The notes beneath the pieces were generated by a model, which was not told the origin of the DNA, did not search any database, and was given only the letters and a program-made list of their open reading frames with translations. This document shows, in pieces, positions 19,369 through 46,254 of a stretch of DNA of 64,000 nt. The translations under genes and the position numbers were made by a program. The number at the start of each line of letters is the position of its first letter. The first letter of the stretch is position 1. Source of the DNA: Thalassomonas haliotis (GTDB taxonomy: Bacteria > Pseudomonadota > Gammaproteobacteria > Enterobacterales > Alteromonadaceae); NCBI RefSeq assembly GCF_028657945.1, contig NZ_CP059693.1, forward strand, positions 5,580,001-5,644,000, written 5' to 3'.

Positions 19369-19568
19369 TTTCACATCCAGGTGACCGCGGCATTGCCTGC
19401 ATGTATGCCGGTACTTAGTTTATGCCTGGAACAAATAAACTGACCATACATCCTGTATATACGGTCACTCCTTCACATCCATGTGACCGCGACATACCAT
19501 ACATCCTGTATATACGGTCACTCCTTCACATCCATGTGACCGCGACATACCATACATCCTGTATATAA
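19369..19568. repeat. Tandem intergenic repeat, 53-bp period (copy A of a dispersed family)
   Basis: The units starting at 19443 and 19496 are near-identical with a 53-base period, and a third partial unit starts at 19549. Each full unit contains GGTCAC ... GTGACC as an inverted repeat (19463-19488) around TCCTTCACATCC, and the phrase CATACATCCTGTATATA. A diverged copy precedes them from 19369 (TTCACATCCAGGTGACCGCG). Related copies are at 22754-22859 and 57196-57297. Confidence 0.85.
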
Positions 19569-22753: not shown

Positions 22754-22859
22754 ACCTGCTCCTGTTCGTCCATGAACTCGCAAGGATAAATACTTCCATG
22801 TATAAACCCTGCTCCTGTTCGTCCATGAACTCGCAAGGATAAATACTTCCATGTATAAA
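22754..22859. repeat. Tandem intergenic repeat, two 53-bp units (copy B of the dispersed family)
   Basis: TGCTCCTGTTCGTCCATGAA at 22757 recurs at 22810, exactly 53 bases later; the two units are almost identical. The phrases TCCATG, CTCGC and ATACTTCCATGTATA align with CATCCATG, CCGC and ATACATCCTGTATA of the units at 19443-19568. It lies between the converging LysR and DUF885 genes. Confidence 0.8.
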
Positions 22860-40015: not shown

Positions 40016-40735
40016 ATGACAGAGAATATAAAGATTTTATTGGTAGAAGACGATGTCAGCCTGGCTTCCTGGATCAGCGAATATTTACTGGAACAAGCGT
40101 TCCAGGTAAAACATGTTGAACGCGGCGATCAGGTGATGGCGGCACTGGCAGACTTCCCGGCAGACCTGGTCTTGCTTGATGTCATGTTACCCGGCCTGAA
40201 TGGCATCGAAGTGTGCCGGCTGATCCGGGAAAAATCGGCCATTCCCATTATTATGCTGACGGCACGCGCCGATGAATTTGATGAAGTGATCGGCCTGGAA
40301 GCCGGCGCCAATGATTATGTGATCAAACCGGTACGCCCCAGGGCCTTGCTCGCCCGCATTAAAAGCGCACTAAGAACCCGGGTGGTGGAAGCCGGACCCA
40401 GCAATAAACTGGTCCATGGCGACCTGGTGATTTACCAGGATGCCAAACGGGTGATCTACCAGGGGCAAGAAATTGAATTATCCACCAATTTATTTGCCTT
40501 TTTATGGTTTTTAGCCAGCCATGCCGGGGAAGTCATCGACCGGGATACGGTATTTAAGGCCCTTAAAGGTCGGGAGTATGACGGCCTGGATCGCCGCTTT
40601 GATGTTATGCTTTCCAGCTTAAGGAAAGTCTTTCACGACGATCCGCAAAAACCGAAAAAGTTTAAAACCATCTGGGGTAAAGGTTACCTGTTTGTCGCCG
40701 ATGCCTGGCAGGACAATAACCCAGCCGAGTCATGA
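40016..40735 (+). CDS. OmpR-family response regulator (RstA-like)
   Basis: A 239-residue regulator with a receiver domain (VEDDVSLASW acidic pair, phospho-acceptor Asp in LLDVMLPGLNGIE, Thr in MLTARADEFDEV, Lys in VIKPVRPRALLARI). A winged-helix DNA-binding domain ends FKTIWGKGYLFVA. It overlaps the kinase gene by four bases (ATGA), so the two are translated together. It is 64 bases after DUF3019. Likely targets are the MipA/DUF3019 genes upstream. Confidence 0.9.
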   Translation: MTENIKILLVEDDVSLASWISEYLLEQAFQVKHVERGDQVMAALADFPADLVLLDVMLPGLNGIEVCRLIREKSAIPIIMLTARADEFDEVIGLEAGANDYVIKPVRPRALLARIKSALRTRVVEAGPSNKLVHGDLVIYQDAKRVIYQGQEIELSTNLFAFLWFLASHAGEVIDRDTVFKALKGREYDGLDRRFDVMLSSLRKVFHDDPQKPKKFKTIWGKGYLFVADAWQDNNPAES

Positions 40736-42033
40736 AAAGTCTTTACGCCAGTATTATTTTTACCGTTTTTGGCTCCTTGTTTTTTATCGGCTGGGGCCTG
40801 GACAAACTGGTTGCCGACCACACGGTATCCGAAGACAGCAAAGAGATCGTCTTTTATAAACAGTTGATTGAAGGCTTAAGCCAGCAACTTAACCAGTTGC
40901 CCGGGGAAGATATCCCGAAAGAGGCCGATAAGTTCCGGCAGTTTTTCCAGATGGACCTCAGCCTGAAAAATGCCGACAATATCGCCCTGCCGCGCACCTT
41001 AAGCAGCAAGTTATCACAAAGCGGCGGTTTATTGCTGGCATCGGAATCCGGCGCCTACTTATTAAAAAGCATCGACAGCGATCCCCAGCAAATCCTGCAA
41101 CTGAACTTGCCGCCTGAGCCGATCCACAACCAGAAACTGGATTTGTTCCTGACTTTAGCCTTATACGTCGGGGTTTGCGGCGTGTTGATTTTATGGTCCT
41201 TGCCGTTAACCCGGCGTATTTACCTGCTCAATGCCGCTGCCGCCAAATTCGGCAAAGGAGACTTAACAGTCAGGGTACCGAAAAGCCGCTTCTCCTACAT
41301 TACCATGCTAGAAAACAGTTTTAACCGCATGGCAACGCAAATAGAAACCCTGATCGCCGACAATAAAATGCTCGCCAGCAGCTTATCCCATGATATCCGC
41401 ACCCCTATGGCCTGTTTACGCTTTGGTGTCGATGCCGCGCTGGACACCACCAATACCGAGAAAAAAGACATTTACCTGAACCGCATGGACAACGAGCTGA
41501 CCCGGATGGAAGATATGACCGCGGCCTTTTTGGAATTCGCCGGACTGGAGCGTCACGGCTTACATTTAAAAGTCACCCCGGTTGAAGTAAAAGCCTTGCT
41601 GAATTCCATTATCGAAGACAGCCAATCGCTGGCGGAGCAGCATAATATCAAGCTTACCGCGGTGCTGCCGGAGCAGGAAATTTATTGCCAGCTCGACTTT
41701 CACTGGTGTTACCGGGCGATACAGAATCTGGTAGGCAATGCCTTTCAATATGCCGCCACCGAAGTCTTGCTGACCTTAAAACAAAAAGATCACAGGATTA
41801 TTATCACGGTAGAAGATGACGGCGTCGGCATACCAAAAGATAAACTGAAAACGATTTTTTCTCCTTTTGTCAAGCTAGAGCAAAACCGCTCCCGGGAGCA
41901 AGGTCACTTTGGTCTTGGGCTAGCCATTAGCGCCAAAGTAATGGACTGGCACGAAGGTAAGATTTGTGCAGAAAAGTCATCAGCCTTATCCGGGGCTTGC
42001 TTTATCCTGTCCCTGCCGGAAAAACAGCACTAA
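40732..42033 (+). CDS. Sensor histidine kinase (RstB-like)
   Basis: A 433-residue inner-membrane kinase with helices at about 5-23 and 137-157 flanking a periplasmic domain of about 110 residues. It has a HAMP domain (NAAAAKFGKGDLTVRVPK), the His box SLSHDIRTPMACLRF, and the N box IQNLVGNAFQYA. The G boxes are EDDGVGIP and FGLGLAIS. It lies immediately after its response regulator. The signal is unknown; the surrounding envelope genes point to cell-surface stress. Confidence 0.9.
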   Translation: MKSLYASIIFTVFGSLFFIGWGLDKLVADHTVSEDSKEIVFYKQLIEGLSQQLNQLPGEDIPKEADKFRQFFQMDLSLKNADNIALPRTLSSKLSQSGGLLLASESGAYLLKSIDSDPQQILQLNLPPEPIHNQKLDLFLTLALYVGVCGVLILWSLPLTRRIYLLNAAAAKFGKGDLTVRVPKSRFSYITMLENSFNRMATQIETLIADNKMLASSLSHDIRTPMACLRFGVDAALDTTNTEKKDIYLNRMDNELTRMEDMTAAFLEFAGLERHGLHLKVTPVEVKALLNSIIEDSQSLAEQHNIKLTAVLPEQEIYCQLDFHWCYRAIQNLVGNAFQYAATEVLLTLKQKDHRIIITVEDDGVGIPKDKLKTIFSPFVKLEQNRSREQGHFGLGLAISAKVMDWHEGKICAEKSSALSGACFILSLPEKQH

Positions 42034-42184
42034 CAGGCCCCATAAACACAAAAATACCACATCACAAAATTGCACTGTTTTTGTGATACAAATGTGATAA
42101 CTCAGTGACCAAGTCGCAATATCTGCTGCCCATACTTGCTTTTGTTGATTGTTTTTTGCTTATTAAAACTAGAAGGAAGCACAG

Positions 42185-42886
42185 ATGAAACTCAAGTCAC
42201 TATTCGCCGTTGCCGCATTGGCAGCGGGCAGCTCAGCGGCACAAGCCCAGGATTTAAATATCACAGTCACTAACCTGACCCAGGCAATCTATTTTACTCC
42301 GCTGATCACCGCTGCTCACACAGCGGATAACCAAATGTTTTCCAGCGGCACAGCTGCCAGCACGCAATTACAGGCAATGGCGGAAGGCGGAGATATCTCC
42401 GGTTTATCAACCCTGCTTACCGGTGTGAGTGCCGATATTAATGAAAACCCCGCCGGCGGCTTGTTGGCACCGGCCATGTCGACTTCTTTTATGCTTACCA
42501 ACAGCGAAAATAATGACTATCTGTCGCTGGCGGCCATGATTTTACCTTCCAACGACGGCTTTGTCGGCCTGGACAGCTGGATGATACCGGAAGAAGCCGG
42601 CACCTACACCCTCTATCTTAACGCCTATGACGCCGGCACCGAAGCCAACAATGAACTGGTTGTCGAAGGCAGCGGCGCACCGGGTGTTGCCGGCATTCCA
42701 GCCGCCCCCGGCGGTGATGCAGGTACAGGCGGCACAGGCGTGACCAGCAGCGAAGGAAATACTATGGTGCATATTCACCGCGGCAACCTCGGAGATGATA
42801 ACCTGACCGGCGGCAGCAGTGATCTCACCAATAACGTACACCGCTGGTTAAACCCGGTTGCCAAAATCACCATAGTGGTCATGTAA
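42185..42886 (+). CDS. Spondin-domain exported protein
   Basis: A 233-residue secreted protein with signal peptide (about 1-21, cleavage after AQA). The spondin-N-like domain reads DLNITVTNLTQAIYFTPLI, then ALxEGG-type text (QAMAEGGDISGL), then LSLAAMILPSNDGFVGLDSW, NAYDAGTEANNEL and the C-terminal HRWLNPVAKITIVV. These blocks recur in bacterial spondin-domain proteins. A Gly-rich insert of about 30 residues (about 165-195) separates the last block. It has a GAAGG ribosome site. It is paired with a second spondin protein nine bases downstream. Confidence 0.85.
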   Translation: MKLKSLFAVAALAAGSSAAQAQDLNITVTNLTQAIYFTPLITAAHTADNQMFSSGTAASTQLQAMAEGGDISGLSTLLTGVSADINENPAGGLLAPAMSTSFMLTNSENNDYLSLAAMILPSNDGFVGLDSWMIPEEAGTYTLYLNAYDAGTEANNELVVEGSGAPGVAGIPAAPGGDAGTGGTGVTSSEGNTMVHIHRGNLGDDNLTGGSSDLTNNVHRWLNPVAKITIVVM

Positions 42887-42895
42887 GGAGGCTTT

Positions 42896-43615
42896 ATGTC
42901 TATCTATAACATTAAAGGGCTGGCGCCGCTTGCCCTGGTGACCTTGCTCAGCGCCTGCGGCGGCAGTGATAACGACAACGACAATGACGGTGTTGTTGAT
43001 ATGCCCGAACCAACACCGGTTGAAATGAGTTATGAAGTTACCGTAACCAATTTGACCTATGCCCAGCCATTATCGCCGATTGCCGTGGTATTACATGGCG
43101 ACAGTGCGCTGTGGACAGTTGGCGAAATGGCCTCGACGCCACTGGAAATACTCGCTGAAGGTGGTGATAATAGCGATTTAATCGCCATGGAATCAGTTTT
43201 AGCCTCAGTTTCAGGTGAGGCTGCGGTAGGACCGGGGGCAAGCACTACGTTAATGGTAAGCACCACAGATGAAATGGCGACACATTTGTCTATAGTTTCT
43301 ATGTTGGTGAATACAAATGACGCCTTTACCGGTCTAACTGCCATGGACTTATCTTCATTAACGGTAGATAACCCACAAACATGGACTTTAGGCGTATATG
43401 ACGCAGGCACCGAAGCCAATAGTGAACTTGCCGGCACTATTCCAGGACCTGCCGACGGCGGCACCGGGTATATCGCTGAGCGCGACGATGTCGACTTTGT
43501 CGCCAAGCATCCCGGGGTAGTCACCATGGACGACGGCTTGTCGACCTCAGTATTAACGCAGGCCCATAGATTTGATAATCCGGCAATAAAATTAACAATA
43601 ACGCGGAAGCAATAG
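42896..43615 (+). CDS. Spondin-domain lipoprotein
   Basis: A 239-residue paralogue of the preceding protein, but with a lipobox (LLSAC, Cys21), so it is lipid-anchored, while the first copy is soluble. After an Asp/Asn-rich linker (about residues 24-36) the spondin blocks follow: YEVTVTNLTYAQPLSPIAV, ILAEGGDNSDL, HLSIVSMLVNTNDAFTGL, VYDAGTEANSEL and HRFDNPAIKLTI. The two genes are nine bases apart and clearly co-transcribed. A soluble and an anchored copy next to two two-component systems suggests a shared surface function, but the ligand is unknown. Confidence 0.85.
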   Translation: MSIYNIKGLAPLALVTLLSACGGSDNDNDNDGVVDMPEPTPVEMSYEVTVTNLTYAQPLSPIAVVLHGDSALWTVGEMASTPLEILAEGGDNSDLIAMESVLASVSGEAAVGPGASTTLMVSTTDEMATHLSIVSMLVNTNDAFTGLTAMDLSSLTVDNPQTWTLGVYDAGTEANSELAGTIPGPADGGTGYIAERDDVDFVAKHPGVVTMDDGLSTSVLTQAHRFDNPAIKLTITRKQ

Positions 43616-43622
43616 GAAAACT

Positions 43623-43649
43623 GCACTGGCCAGTTTTCCTGGCCAGTGC
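43623..43649 (+). promoter_or_regulatory. Perfect 11-bp hairpin abutting the response-regulator start
   Basis: GCACTGGCCAG (43623-43633), loop TTTTC, CTGGCCAGTGC (43639-43649). Two bases later comes ATG 43652. There is no U-tract after the stem, so it is not a standard terminator. Folded in the mRNA it would cover the space where a ribosome site should be. Confidence 0.75.
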
Positions 43650-43651
43650 CT

Positions 43652-44374
43652 ATGAAAGACAAAGTTTTAATTGTAGAAGACGAATTAGACATCGCCGAGT
43701 TGATAAAAGTACATTTATCCGAACTCGATCTTGAGGCGGAAATATGCGGTCATGGTGATTTAGCCCTGAAAATGGCGTTAAACCAGGACTTTCAACTGGT
43801 GATACTGGATGTCATGTTACCCGGCACCAATGGTTTGGACATTTGCCGGGAACTACGCGGCGCCAAGCCCCTGCAGGCGATCATGATGCTCACTTCACGA
43901 ACATCGGAAACCGACCGGGTGTTGGGGCTGGAATTAGGCGCCGACGATTACTTAAGTAAACCTTTTAGCGTCAGGGAATTGCAAGCCAGGGTGCGCAGCC
44001 AGCTTCGGCGGGTACATAGCCTGGCACAAAGCCAGAACCAGGAGAAGAATCAGGAAAGTGCGGTGACCTGCATCGGCGATTTAATGGTAGATCACAGGTG
44101 CCACCAGGTGACCTATCAAAATGAAGCGATAGAGTTAACCTCCACCGAATTTGATCTGCTGAGCTTTTTAGGCAAACACCCGGACCAGGTATTTTCACGG
44201 GCCCAATTGCTGGACTCGGTATGGGGGTACCACCATAGCGGTTACGAGCACACGGTAAATTCCCATATCAACCGCTTGCGCAATAAACTGGAACGGGACA
44301 GTGCCAACCCGCAAATAATCCAAACCGTGTGGGGGGTCGGCTATAAACTCAACTCCGCAGGTGTGAGCAGTTAA
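43652..44374 (+). CDS. OmpR-family response regulator
   Basis: A 240-residue receiver/winged-helix protein starting at ATG 43652 (MKDKVLIVEDELDIAEL); a GTG at 43646 lies inside a hairpin. Phospho-acceptor Asp is in ILDVMLPGTNGLD, Lys in YLSKPFSVRELQARV, and the DNA-binding end is IIQTVWGVGYKLN. No standard ribosome site is visible between the hairpin and the ATG, so initiation may be regulated. It is followed by tandem repeats derived from its own 3' end and then by its probable kinase. It is 36 bases after the spondin lipoprotein gene. Confidence 0.9.
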   Translation: MKDKVLIVEDELDIAELIKVHLSELDLEAEICGHGDLALKMALNQDFQLVILDVMLPGTNGLDICRELRGAKPLQAIMMLTSRTSETDRVLGLELGADDYLSKPFSVRELQARVRSQLRRVHSLAQSQNQEKNQESAVTCIGDLMVDHRCHQVTYQNEAIELTSTEFDLLSFLGKHPDQVFSRAQLLDSVWGYHHSGYEHTVNSHINRLRNKLERDSANPQIIQTVWGVGYKLNSAGVSS

Positions 44375-44716
44375 AAAATATAACCGGTAACAGATGAGCA
44401 CAGGATTTTGACAAGCCGAAAATAATGCAAACACTCTCGGCAATACACGGTCTTGGCTATAAACTCAACTCCGCAGGTGTGAGCAGTTAAAAAATATAAC
44501 CGGTAACAGATGAGCACAGGATTTTGACAAGCCAAAAATAATGCAAACACTCTCGGCAATACACGGTCTTGGCTATAAACTACCCCCTACGGGAGTGAGC
44601 GGTAAAAAACAACCGGCAACAAATTGGAACAGTTTTTTGCTCGGGCATACATTATCAACACTCTAGATAATACACGCCATGACTTAAACTTAATTCAGCA
44701 GGAGTAAGCGGCTAAC
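44339..44716 (+). repeat. Tandem repeat of the response-regulator gene tail (about 116-bp units)
   Basis: Units start at 44339, 44455 and 44571 (116-base period); a degenerate part-unit follows at about 44681. Units 1 and 2 are nearly identical; unit 3 is diverged. Each unit begins GGCTATAAACT, encoding the regulator's C-terminus GYKLNSAGVSS and stop, so the array copies the gene's last codons plus the downstream spacer. The end of each unit (CAATACACGGTCTT) also resembles the sequence before GGCTATAAACT in the gene. Together they push the kinase start to about 355 bases after the regulator stop. Confidence 0.9.
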
Positions 44717-44730
44717 CCCCTTATAAGCGA

Positions 44731-46254
44731 ATGAAAATATCATTATACCAGCGTCTGGCAATCACCTTATCCTTTGCCTTTATTTTAATGGCTTATCTGC
44801 TGTATTGGTGGAGCAGCGAGCTTTCCCAGCATTCCCAGCACCAGGCAGAGCAAAAATTGCACCTGCAACTGGCAGAACATCTCGCCCATGACAACCCTTT
44901 ACTGCAGGACGGCGTTTACGACAAAAAAGCCCTGGCAAACCTGTTCCATACCCTGATGTTGCTGGGACCCTCGTTTGAGTTTTATTTCCTCGATCCCAGC
45001 GGAAAAATTCTCAGCTACTCCGCCGATGCCAGTAAAATAAAACGCCAGGACGTTAATATACGCCCGCTGCTGGATTTAATTGAAAACCCGCAAAAGCTGC
45101 CGCTTTATGGCGATGATCCCAGGAGTACAGATAAGCAGAAAATCTTCTCCGTGGCTCCCGTGTATACCAATGAACATAATACCAGTGAAACAAACACCAA
45201 TGAAAGTACTCAGGATAAAACCTTGCAAGGCTATCTCTACGTCATTATCGGCGGGGAAATATATGACTCGGTATTCCAGGTCACGAAATCGGATCAACAG
45301 CTGCAGCAAAATATTATGCTGATCTGCGGCGGCCTGCTGTTATTATTGCTTTTACTGCTGGCACTGTTCCGCTACTTTACTTCCCCTATCCGACTATTGC
45401 TCGCCGATATGCAGGCAATTCAGCAACATAAATTCGATCCCGCCAAGGTCAATTTGCACAAGTGGCCGAAAAATGACAGCAATGAAGTTAACCTGCTCGG
45501 CTGTGCCTTTACCGCCATGGTGGAGCAAATTAATGCCCAGTTATTACAGCTCAATGCCAACGAGCGCATGCGCAAAGAGTTGCTGGCCCACCTGTCACAC
45601 GACTTACGCACGCCACTGGCGGCCATGCAGGGCTATATTGAAACCCTGGCGATAAAAGGAGACTCAATCAGCCAGCAAGAGCGGGAACAATATATCGCCA
45701 CGGTTTTACGTAACGGCAAACAGCTAAAAATGCTGATCGACCAGATTTTTGAACTGGCCCACCTGGAAGACGGCCAGGTCTCGGTTAACCTGGAAACCTT
45801 CCCTATCGGCGAATTGCTCTATGACATTGTCGCCAAGTTCTCCCTGAAAGCCAGCGAGAAAAACATCCGCTTAACCCTGAACCCCCAGCAATGTCGCTAT
45901 ATGGTTTATTCGGATATTGCCAAGCTGGAACGTATCCTCACTAATCTGCTGGAAAACGCCATTCGCCATACCCCGCAACAGGGAGAAATCACCCTGGAAG
46001 TAATACAGGATAAAGACAAAGTCAAAGTTTCGGTGATAGATACCGGTACCGGCATCAGCAATGAAGATATTGCCTATATTTTCGATCCCAGATACCGCGC
46101 CAGCAACGCCACCGGGGATAAAAAACAACATGCCGGATTGGGGCTGGCCATCAGTAAACGCCTGAGCATGATTTTAAATTCGGAATTAAGTGTCGAAAGT
46201 AAACTCGGCAAAGGCTGCCGCTTTTCTTTTTGCCTGCAGTCGGTGATGACCTGA
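44731..46254 (+). CDS. Sensor histidine kinase with PhoQ/BaeS-like layout
   Basis: A 507-residue membrane kinase. Helices lie at about 10-28 and 193-213, with a periplasmic domain of about 160 residues between them that includes a Thr/Asn-rich patch (NEHNTSETNTNEST). A HAMP-like linker is followed by the His box HLSHDLRTPLAAMQGY, the N box LTNLLENAIRHTP and G boxes DTGTGIS and HAGLGLAIS. It presumably pairs with the regulator at 43652-44374, from which it is separated only by the repeat array. No other kinase or regulator gene lies between them. Confidence 0.9.
   Translation: MKISLYQRLAITLSFAFILMAYLLYWWSSELSQHSQHQAEQKLHLQLAEHLAHDNPLLQDGVYDKKALANLFHTLMLLGPSFEFYFLDPSGKILSYSADASKIKRQDVNIRPLLDLIENPQKLPLYGDDPRSTDKQKIFSVAPVYTNEHNTSETNTNESTQDKTLQGYLYVIIGGEIYDSVFQVTKSDQQLQQNIMLICGGLLLLLLLLLALFRYFTSPIRLLLADMQAIQQHKFDPAKVNLHKWPKNDSNEVNLLGCAFTAMVEQINAQLLQLNANERMRKELLAHLSHDLRTPLAAMQGYIETLAIKGDSISQQEREQYIATVLRNGKQLKMLIDQIFELAHLEDGQVSVNLETFPIGELLYDIVAKFSLKASEKNIRLTLNPQQCRYMVYSDIAKLERILTNLLENAIRHTPQQGEITLEVIQDKDKVKVSVIDTGTGISNEDIAYIFDPRYRASNATGDKKQHAGLGLAISKRLSMILNSELSVESKLGKGCRFSFCLQSVMT

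What the first reader, a model, noticed from the sequence alone, without database searches (positions are those of the whole stretch)
44339..44716. Tandem duplications of a gene's 3' end between a response regulator and its kinase
116-bp units copy the last codons of the regulator (GYKLNSAGVSS-stop) plus the following spacer, two near-identical and one diverged. Such arrays usually form by slippage or recombination and can vary in copy number. They lengthen the spacer between regulator and kinase to about 355 bases and could tune kinase expression by phase-like variation.
Basis: seen in the sequence. Interest (0 to 1): 0.65.

Follow-up and report, generated by a model that had tools for sequence, protein, structure and literature searches.

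The report
Decayed tandem copies of gene end
The DNA between a bacterial regulator gene and its partner kinase gene is made of three worn tandem copies of the regulator's own tail, an ordinary kind of local duplication whose copy number differs between related species and which has pushed the two genes 356 bases apart.

Summary
In detail: two 116-bp units (99% identical) and a diverged third follow the regulator's stop. Of the four genomes held for the genus, two have no extra copy, one has one, the window's has three. The newest duplication runs between copies of an 11-bp direct repeat. No promoter or terminator site, unusual RNA fold or Rfam match was found in the spacer. Similar gene-end duplications occur elsewhere in this genome (6 of 553 sampled ORFs at 3' ends, 5 of 553 at 5' ends); the genus shows no significant excess over its family (10 of 1141 against 2 of 572, p 0.36). 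Best reading: neutral tandem duplication across a stop codon, with the side effect of uncoupling kinase translation. Phase-like tuning of the kinase has no support here but is not excluded.

The parts
43655..44374 (+). OmpR/PhoB-type response regulator gene (ATG start; an upstream GTG at 43646 is also open)
   Evidence: Pfam Response_reg 1.7e-24 and Trans_reg_C 1.5e-28; 97-99% identical in the three other genus members
44265..44374 (+). parent segment: the regulator's own 3' end, from which the copies descend
   Evidence: local alignments of the copies to this stretch with shuffle controls
44375..44490 (+). copy 1 of the gene end (5' part decayed, last 36 nt from GGCTATAAACTC to TTAA identical to the gene)
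44491..44606 (+). copy 2 (5' part one base different from copy 1; tail diverged after GGCTATAAACT)
44607..44718 (+). copy 3, the last one: decayed, but carries the native gene-end and junction letters of the relatives (TTAATTCAGCAGGAGTAAGCGGCTAA)
   Evidence: score 52 against the array-free relative G001, shuffled mean 18.1, 0 of 2000; alignment
44339..44570 (+). the newest event: a 116-bp tandem duplication (44339-44454 and 44455-44570)
44571..44581 (+). GGCTATAAACT, the 11-bp direct repeat (also at 44339-44349 and 44455-44465) that bounds the 116-bp duplication
   Evidence: read: the letters on both sides of these 11 bases differ between the gene (44339) and the last unit (44571)
44731..46254 (+). 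sensor histidine kinase gene, intact, 507 aa
   Evidence: Pfam HisKA 1.1e-15, HATPase_c 1.7e-24; about 93% identical in the three other genus members

Best explanation
The array is an ordinary short tandem duplication across the stop codon of the response-regulator gene. A segment of about 110 bp (gene end plus junction) was duplicated before the four species of the genus separated. A duplication that spans a stop codon leaves the upstream gene whole in its first copy and the junction to the downstream gene whole in its last copy, so it is tolerated; the copies between lose their coding role and decay. Later, slipped pairing or unequal exchange between two surviving 11-bp GGCTATAAACT repeats duplicated 116 bp again in the window's lineage, while the G001/G002 lineage most likely lost the array by recombination between copies. 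Shown: anatomy, homology of the copies, copy-number differences between species, the 11-bp repeat at the edges. Inferred: order of events, loss in G001/G002, neutrality, and the likely effect that kinase translation, whose start overlaps or touches the regulator's stop in most relatives examined, now begins on its own 356 nt after that stop and so may be lower or noisier.
For: G001 and G002 have the kinase ATG 14 nt after the regulator's TAA and no extra copy; G003 has one decayed copy, with 108 nt from stop to first ATG (an in-frame TTG at 33 nt is also open). In 27 distinct other family loci the first start of the next long ORF lies at most 5 nt past the regulator's stop in 24; the other three are L113 (33 nt), L118 (64) and L002 (57). 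The 5' part of the G003 copy and the window's copy 1 share letters that the gene lacks (CACAGGATTTTG; score 36, shuffled mean 15.3, 0 of 2000). G003 is the outgroup by synonymous distance over seven genes (dS 0.66-0.72 to the others; 0.41-0.43 for G000 to G001/G002; 0.20 for G001 to G002). The two 116-bp units differ at one base. Same architecture elsewhere: at L160 the gene's 3' end matches 7 times in G000, 2 in G001, 4 in G002 (no match in the G003 loci); at L162 two copies in G000, one in each relative; at L142 G000 and G001 carry extra junction copies, G002 and G003 none. Spacer RNA fold z -0.45.
Against: Near the junction the three lineages are about equally distant (RR2 541-717: 0.138, 0.126, 0.121; HK2 1-180: 0.089, 0.094, 0.078), so exchange of the junction between species, instead of loss in G001/G002, is not excluded. 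The protein tree of regulator plus kinase puts G003 with G001/G002 (support 88/79, not decisive), against the synonymous distances. Neutrality was not tested directly; the kinase's dN/dS is higher in G000-G003 (0.052) than in G001-G003 and G002-G003 (0.025, 0.029), though the excess of changes in G000 is not significant. The 5' part of copy 3 alone resembles the gene only weakly (32 of 2000 shuffles as good), and the G003 copy resembles its own gene end through its last 28 nt only (2 of 2000).
Confidence: 0.78

Rival explanations
1. Contingency-type locus: copy number changes within a population and tunes kinase output through spacer length (loss of translational coupling, exposure of untranslated mRNA to Rho).
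For: Two adjacent 116-bp copies at 99% identity are recombinogenic in principle (recalled); copy number differs between species; most relatives examined have overlapping or touching genes. The kinase ATG is predicted less accessible in G000 (unpaired 0.08-0.09) than in G001 and G002 (0.21-0.33), with G003 at 0.09-0.16 (no control was run for this).
Against: No within-species data. Unit number cannot shift a frame. No terminator-like site in 44375-44730; C and G content of the spacer is ordinary (largest C minus G in 78 nt is 11, against 12 and 16 in the two genes). The same kind of duplication sits beside unrelated genes.
Confidence: 0.08
2. The units are functional DNA or RNA for the kinase gene: an own promoter, a leader peptide or a structured leader, kept by selection.
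For: The units hold short open frames (ATG at 44425 gives 21 aa, at 44541 gives 41 aa); the last copy keeps AGGAG near the kinase while the regulator's own copy has GGTGT in G000 and G003.
Against: No sigma-70-like site in the spacer, no Rfam match in the window, fold z -0.45, no short ATG/GTG/TTG frame ends within 20 nt of the kinase ATG, and two species do without any copy. AGGAG lies 26 nt before the ATG, too far for a usual ribosome site (recalled).
Confidence: 0.07
3. Footprints of an integrating or transposing element that targets the regulator's 3' end, or a dispersed intergenic repeat.
For: Direct repeats of a gene's 3' end resemble attachment sites (recalled).
Against: The array DNA matches nothing else in the 6.45-Mb genome at E 0.001; copies lie head to tail with no cargo between them; copies extend through about 110 bp of decayed coding sequence.
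Confidence: 0.03
4. Assembly artefact.
For: Short tandem repeats can be misassembled (recalled); no reads were available to check.
Against: Copies differ (one base between the two 116-bp units, many in copy 3), the genome is one contig, and a decayed copy stands at the same place in G003.
Confidence: 0.02

Closest known systems
Short tandem duplications (VNTR / minisatellite type) formed between short direct repeats by slippage or unequal exchange (recalled)
   Same: Head-to-tail units, near-identical newest copies bounded by an 11-bp direct repeat, older copies diverged, copy number differs between species.
   Different: Only three extra copies, mostly decayed; within-species variation not shown.
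Partial gene duplication giving 3'-terminal pseudogene fragments (recalled)
   Same: The copies are pieces of the upstream gene's coding end, no longer part of the gene and decaying.
   Different: The fragments stay in tandem at the operon junction and form its spacer.
Phase-variable repeat tracts (contingency loci; recalled)
   Same: Repeats next to a regulatory gene.
   Different: Unit is 116 bp, between a stop and a start; no switching or expression effect shown.

Membership tests
Short tandem duplication / VNTR-type array | head-to-tail copies with high identity | tested here: met
Short tandem duplication / VNTR-type array | short direct repeat at the duplication edges | tested here: met
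   11-bp GGCTATAAACT at 44339, 44455 and 44571, read
Short tandem duplication / VNTR-type array | copy number differs between species | tested here: met
   3, 0, 0 and 1 extra copies in G000, G001, G002, G003, the four genomes held for the genus
Short tandem duplication / VNTR-type array | copy number differs between strains of one species | not testable with these tools
   one genome per species held
Phase-variable (contingency) locus | high-rate reversible change within a strain | not testable with these tools
   no reads or strain sets
Phase-variable (contingency) locus | change alters a reading frame or a promoter | tested here: not met
   the repeat lies between a stop and a start; no sigma-70-like site within 44375-44730 (other promoter types are not covered by that scan)
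Partial gene duplication (3' pseudogene fragments) | copies homologous to the coding end of the gene | tested here: met
Dispersed intergenic repeat (REP/MITE type) | copies elsewhere in the genome | tested here: not met
   single place in own genome
Structured RNA leader / riboswitch | known family or unusually stable fold | tested here: not met
   no Rfam match in the window at gathering score; z -0.45, 27 of 100 shuffles fold at least as well

The most novel reading that the evidence does not exclude
Stop-codon-spanning duplications recur at operon junctions in this genus and act as an evolutionary dial that uncouples and re-couples neighbouring genes: they insert a spacer built from the upstream gene's tail and can collapse again between copies to restore the tight junction, so that the kinase-to-regulator ratio changes between lineages and perhaps between cells.
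Probability: 0.08. Interest if true: 0.6.

Novelty: new member of a known kind. Interest (0 to 1): 0.27.

Why it matters
It shows in one locus, with sister species as snapshots, how an operon junction can be loosened without breaking either gene: duplicate across the stop codon and let the inner copies decay. It also says where some intergenic DNA can come from. The same regulator/kinase pair with 0, 1 and 3 extra copies in sister species would be a natural test of whether loss of coupling changes signalling balance.

Tried and rejected
Promoter, terminator, Rfam and RNA-fold scans of the spacer and a look at its C and G content gave nothing. A relaxed-selection signal in the kinase of the array-bearing genome was looked for: 13 amino-acid changes on the G000 line against 8 and 7 on the G001 and G002 lines, binomial p 0.38 and 0.26, not significant. 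The idea that AGGAG is kept in the last copy as the kinase's ribosome site was considered and left as weak.

A genus-wide excess of gene-end duplications looked striking at first: 3 of 351 ORFs in the window plus 400 kb of G000, then 10 of 559 ORFs at 3' ends in 800 kb of G000 against 0 of 292 in family controls and 0 of 371 in diverse loci (5' ends 9, 2 and 0). Four of those ten lay in a CRISPR-like repeat region (L158). With CRISPR-like places dropped (6 of 559 ORFs in G000, 5 of 308 in G003), slightly wider search stretches and a larger control it was 10 of 1141 in the genus against 2 of 572 in the family (p 0.36), or against 2 of 943 with diverse loci added (p 0.077); 3' hits (10) were no commoner than 5' hits (9), and several 5' hits belong to the same places as 3' hits (L160, L167, L182). 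Two of the ten (L211) look to me like neighbouring paralogous genes, not tested, which would leave 8 of 1141. The window itself (1 and 0 of 55 ORFs) was kept out of the genus totals because it was chosen for its array.

Literature: nine searches of the library ran; four of them returned no paper. Passages of two papers were read by term search (PMC3857721, PMC4060949); the others were seen as listings with the start of the abstract. No listing or passage that I saw describes this array or gene-end duplications in this genus; that says only that these searches did not show it. Statements on slippage, translational coupling, Rho and ribosome-site spacing are recalled. The genus name Thalassomonas, used as a term, is my guess from genome size and kin; no tool named the window's genome.

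Full report
What is there. The response-regulator gene (43655-44374, receiver plus Trans_reg_C domains) and its histidine kinase (44731-46254) are separated by 356 nt. Tandem Repeats Finder and the repeat finder confirm a 116-bp unit at 44339-44454 and 44455-44570 (99% identical) followed by a diverged unit, and show a fourth member of the 39-nt repeat at 44680. The array DNA matches one place in the 6.45-Mb genome, which is a single contig.

What the copies are. Aligned with relatives, the spacer reads as three consecutive copies of the regulator's own 3' end: 44375-44490, 44491-44606 and 44607-44718. Copy 3 as a whole matches the gene end of the array-free relative G001 (52 against 18.1) better than its own gene's (44 against 17.4; 0 of 2000 for both) and carries the native junction to the kinase; its 5' part alone is only weakly similar to the gene (32 of 2000). 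So the native end of the gene is the last, worn copy, and the regulator now ends in the first copy.

Relatives. The four genomes held for the genus were compared. G001 and G002 have the kinase ATG 14 nt after the regulator's TAA and no extra copy; G003 has one decayed copy and 108 nt to the first ATG, with an in-frame TTG open at 33 nt; the window's genome (G000) has three copies and 356 nt. Over seven genes, dS is 0.66-0.72 between G003 and the others, 0.41-0.43 between G000 and G001/G002, and 0.20 between G001 and G002, so G003 looks like the outgroup. The G003 copy shares letters with the window's copy 1 that the gene lacks (CACAGGATTTTG; score 36 against 15.3, 0 of 2000), and matches the window's copy 3 plus junction with 67 against 17.5 (0 of 2000); against its own gene end only its last 28 nt align (31 against 17.3, 2 of 2000). 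The simplest history is one old duplication, kept in G003 and the window's line and lost in G001/G002. Two results speak against certainty: the protein tree of regulator plus kinase groups G003 with G001/G002 with modest support (88/79), and near the junction the lineages are about equally distant, so exchange between species is possible.

Newest event. The two 116-bp units differ at one base. The duplication starts at the gene's GGCTATAAACT and ends where the older copy diverges after GGCTATAAACT. These 11 shared bases, with different letters on either side, are the expected footprint of slipped pairing or unequal exchange between older repeats (recalled).

Family-wide arrangement. One search found a regulator relative in 88 of 147 family genomes; only its best 30 loci, plus three, were looked at. 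Leaving out the four genus members, L122 (no kinase-like ORF next to it) and L003 (by its coordinates the same place as L110), 27 remain. In 24 of them the first ATG, GTG or TTG of the next long ORF lies no more than 5 nt past the regulator's stop (in 23 it overlaps or touches it); in three it lies 33, 57 and 64 nt past it. That ORF was taken as the kinase from its place and N-terminus and was not searched; the starts are mechanical first starts. The usual state is thus a tight junction that suggests translational coupling; the array has opened it in the window's genome.

Function. Nothing in the spacer points to a device: no promoter-like or terminator-like site within it, no Rfam family in the window, fold energy z -0.45, ordinary C and G content. 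Short frames exist in the units (up to 41 aa) but none with an ATG, GTG or TTG start ends within 20 nt of the kinase ATG. The kinase ATG is predicted to be less open in G000 (unpaired 0.08-0.09) and G003 (0.09-0.16) than in G001 and G002 (0.21-0.33), a hint without a control. The kinase is intact; its dN/dS is higher in G000-G003 (0.052) than in G001-G003 and G002-G003 (0.025, 0.029), but the excess of amino-acid changes in the window's line is not significant (13 against 8 and 7). The likely consequence, inferred and untested, is independent initiation of kinase translation after 356 bases that the regulator's ribosomes do not cross.

Is it special? In 800 kb sampled from the same genome, 6 of 553 ORFs repeat their 3' end downstream and 5 of 553 their 5' end upstream (6 ORFs at CRISPR-like places dropped); G001 gives 2 and 1 of 285, G003 2 and 3 of 303 (5 dropped), 14 family genomes 2 and 2 of 572, 77 diverse loci 0 and 0 of 371, the window 1 and 0 of 55. 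The genus does not differ significantly from the family at 3' ends (10 of 1141 against 2 of 572, p 0.36) or 5' ends (9 against 2, p 0.35). Three of seven such places in G000 (L141, L142, L143, L160, L162, L167, L176; L142 was found through its 5' hit and by Tandem Repeats Finder) were followed into the relatives, and at all three copy number differs between species: L160 (3' end matched 7, 2 and 4 times in G000, G001, G002; no match in the G003 loci), L162 (2 in G000, 1 in each relative), L142 (extra junction copies in G000 and G001 only). The window's array is therefore one of a class of short gene-boundary duplications and not a peculiarity of this two-component system.

Verdict. Observation confirmed and extended; origin explanation supported; phase-like tuning unsupported. 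A new member of a known kind, of modest interest.

Noticed in passing
window 19443-19567: A perfect 53-bp tandem repeat (2.4 copies) belongs to a dispersed family: 28 matches in the window's genome, itself included. Its motif CGGTCACTCCT occurs twice here and also in the unrelated L143 array; these two arrays account for all 7 occurrences in 864 kb of this genome.
   Followed up: partly
window 22755-22859: Another perfect 53-bp tandem repeat (2.0 copies) with 45 matches in the genome, itself included, many of them at steps of about 52 bp in arrays near 4.89 Mb, 1.15 Mb and 0.51 Mb.
   Followed up: partly
L160 10659-12236 (G000 near 1.171 Mb): A gene's 3' end repeated downstream in 137-bp units: its end matches 7 times in G000, 4 in G002 and 2 in G001, the gene's own end included; a clearer copy-number ladder than the one in the window.
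   Followed up: partly
L142 8719-11090 and L182 4584-6740: A gene junction, flgK-flgL by my recollection of the sequences (not searched), carries tandem copies of the upstream gene's end and the downstream gene's start in G000 (159 bp x 2.4) and one extra copy in G001.
   Followed up: partly
L158 8.3-9.4 kb and 17.5-19.9 kb (G000 near 0.53 Mb): Eight arrays with period 61, probably pieces of CRISPR arrays; not tested further.
   Followed up: no
L143 16002-17163 (G000 near 2.036 Mb): A gene end repeated as a 93-bp unit, 5.0 copies; each unit also contains CGGTCACTCCT.
   Followed up: no
window 40016-43615: A second regulator/kinase pair whose genes overlap by 4 bases, then two spondin-domain proteins (NF038123), stand directly upstream of the pair studied here.
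   Followed up: no
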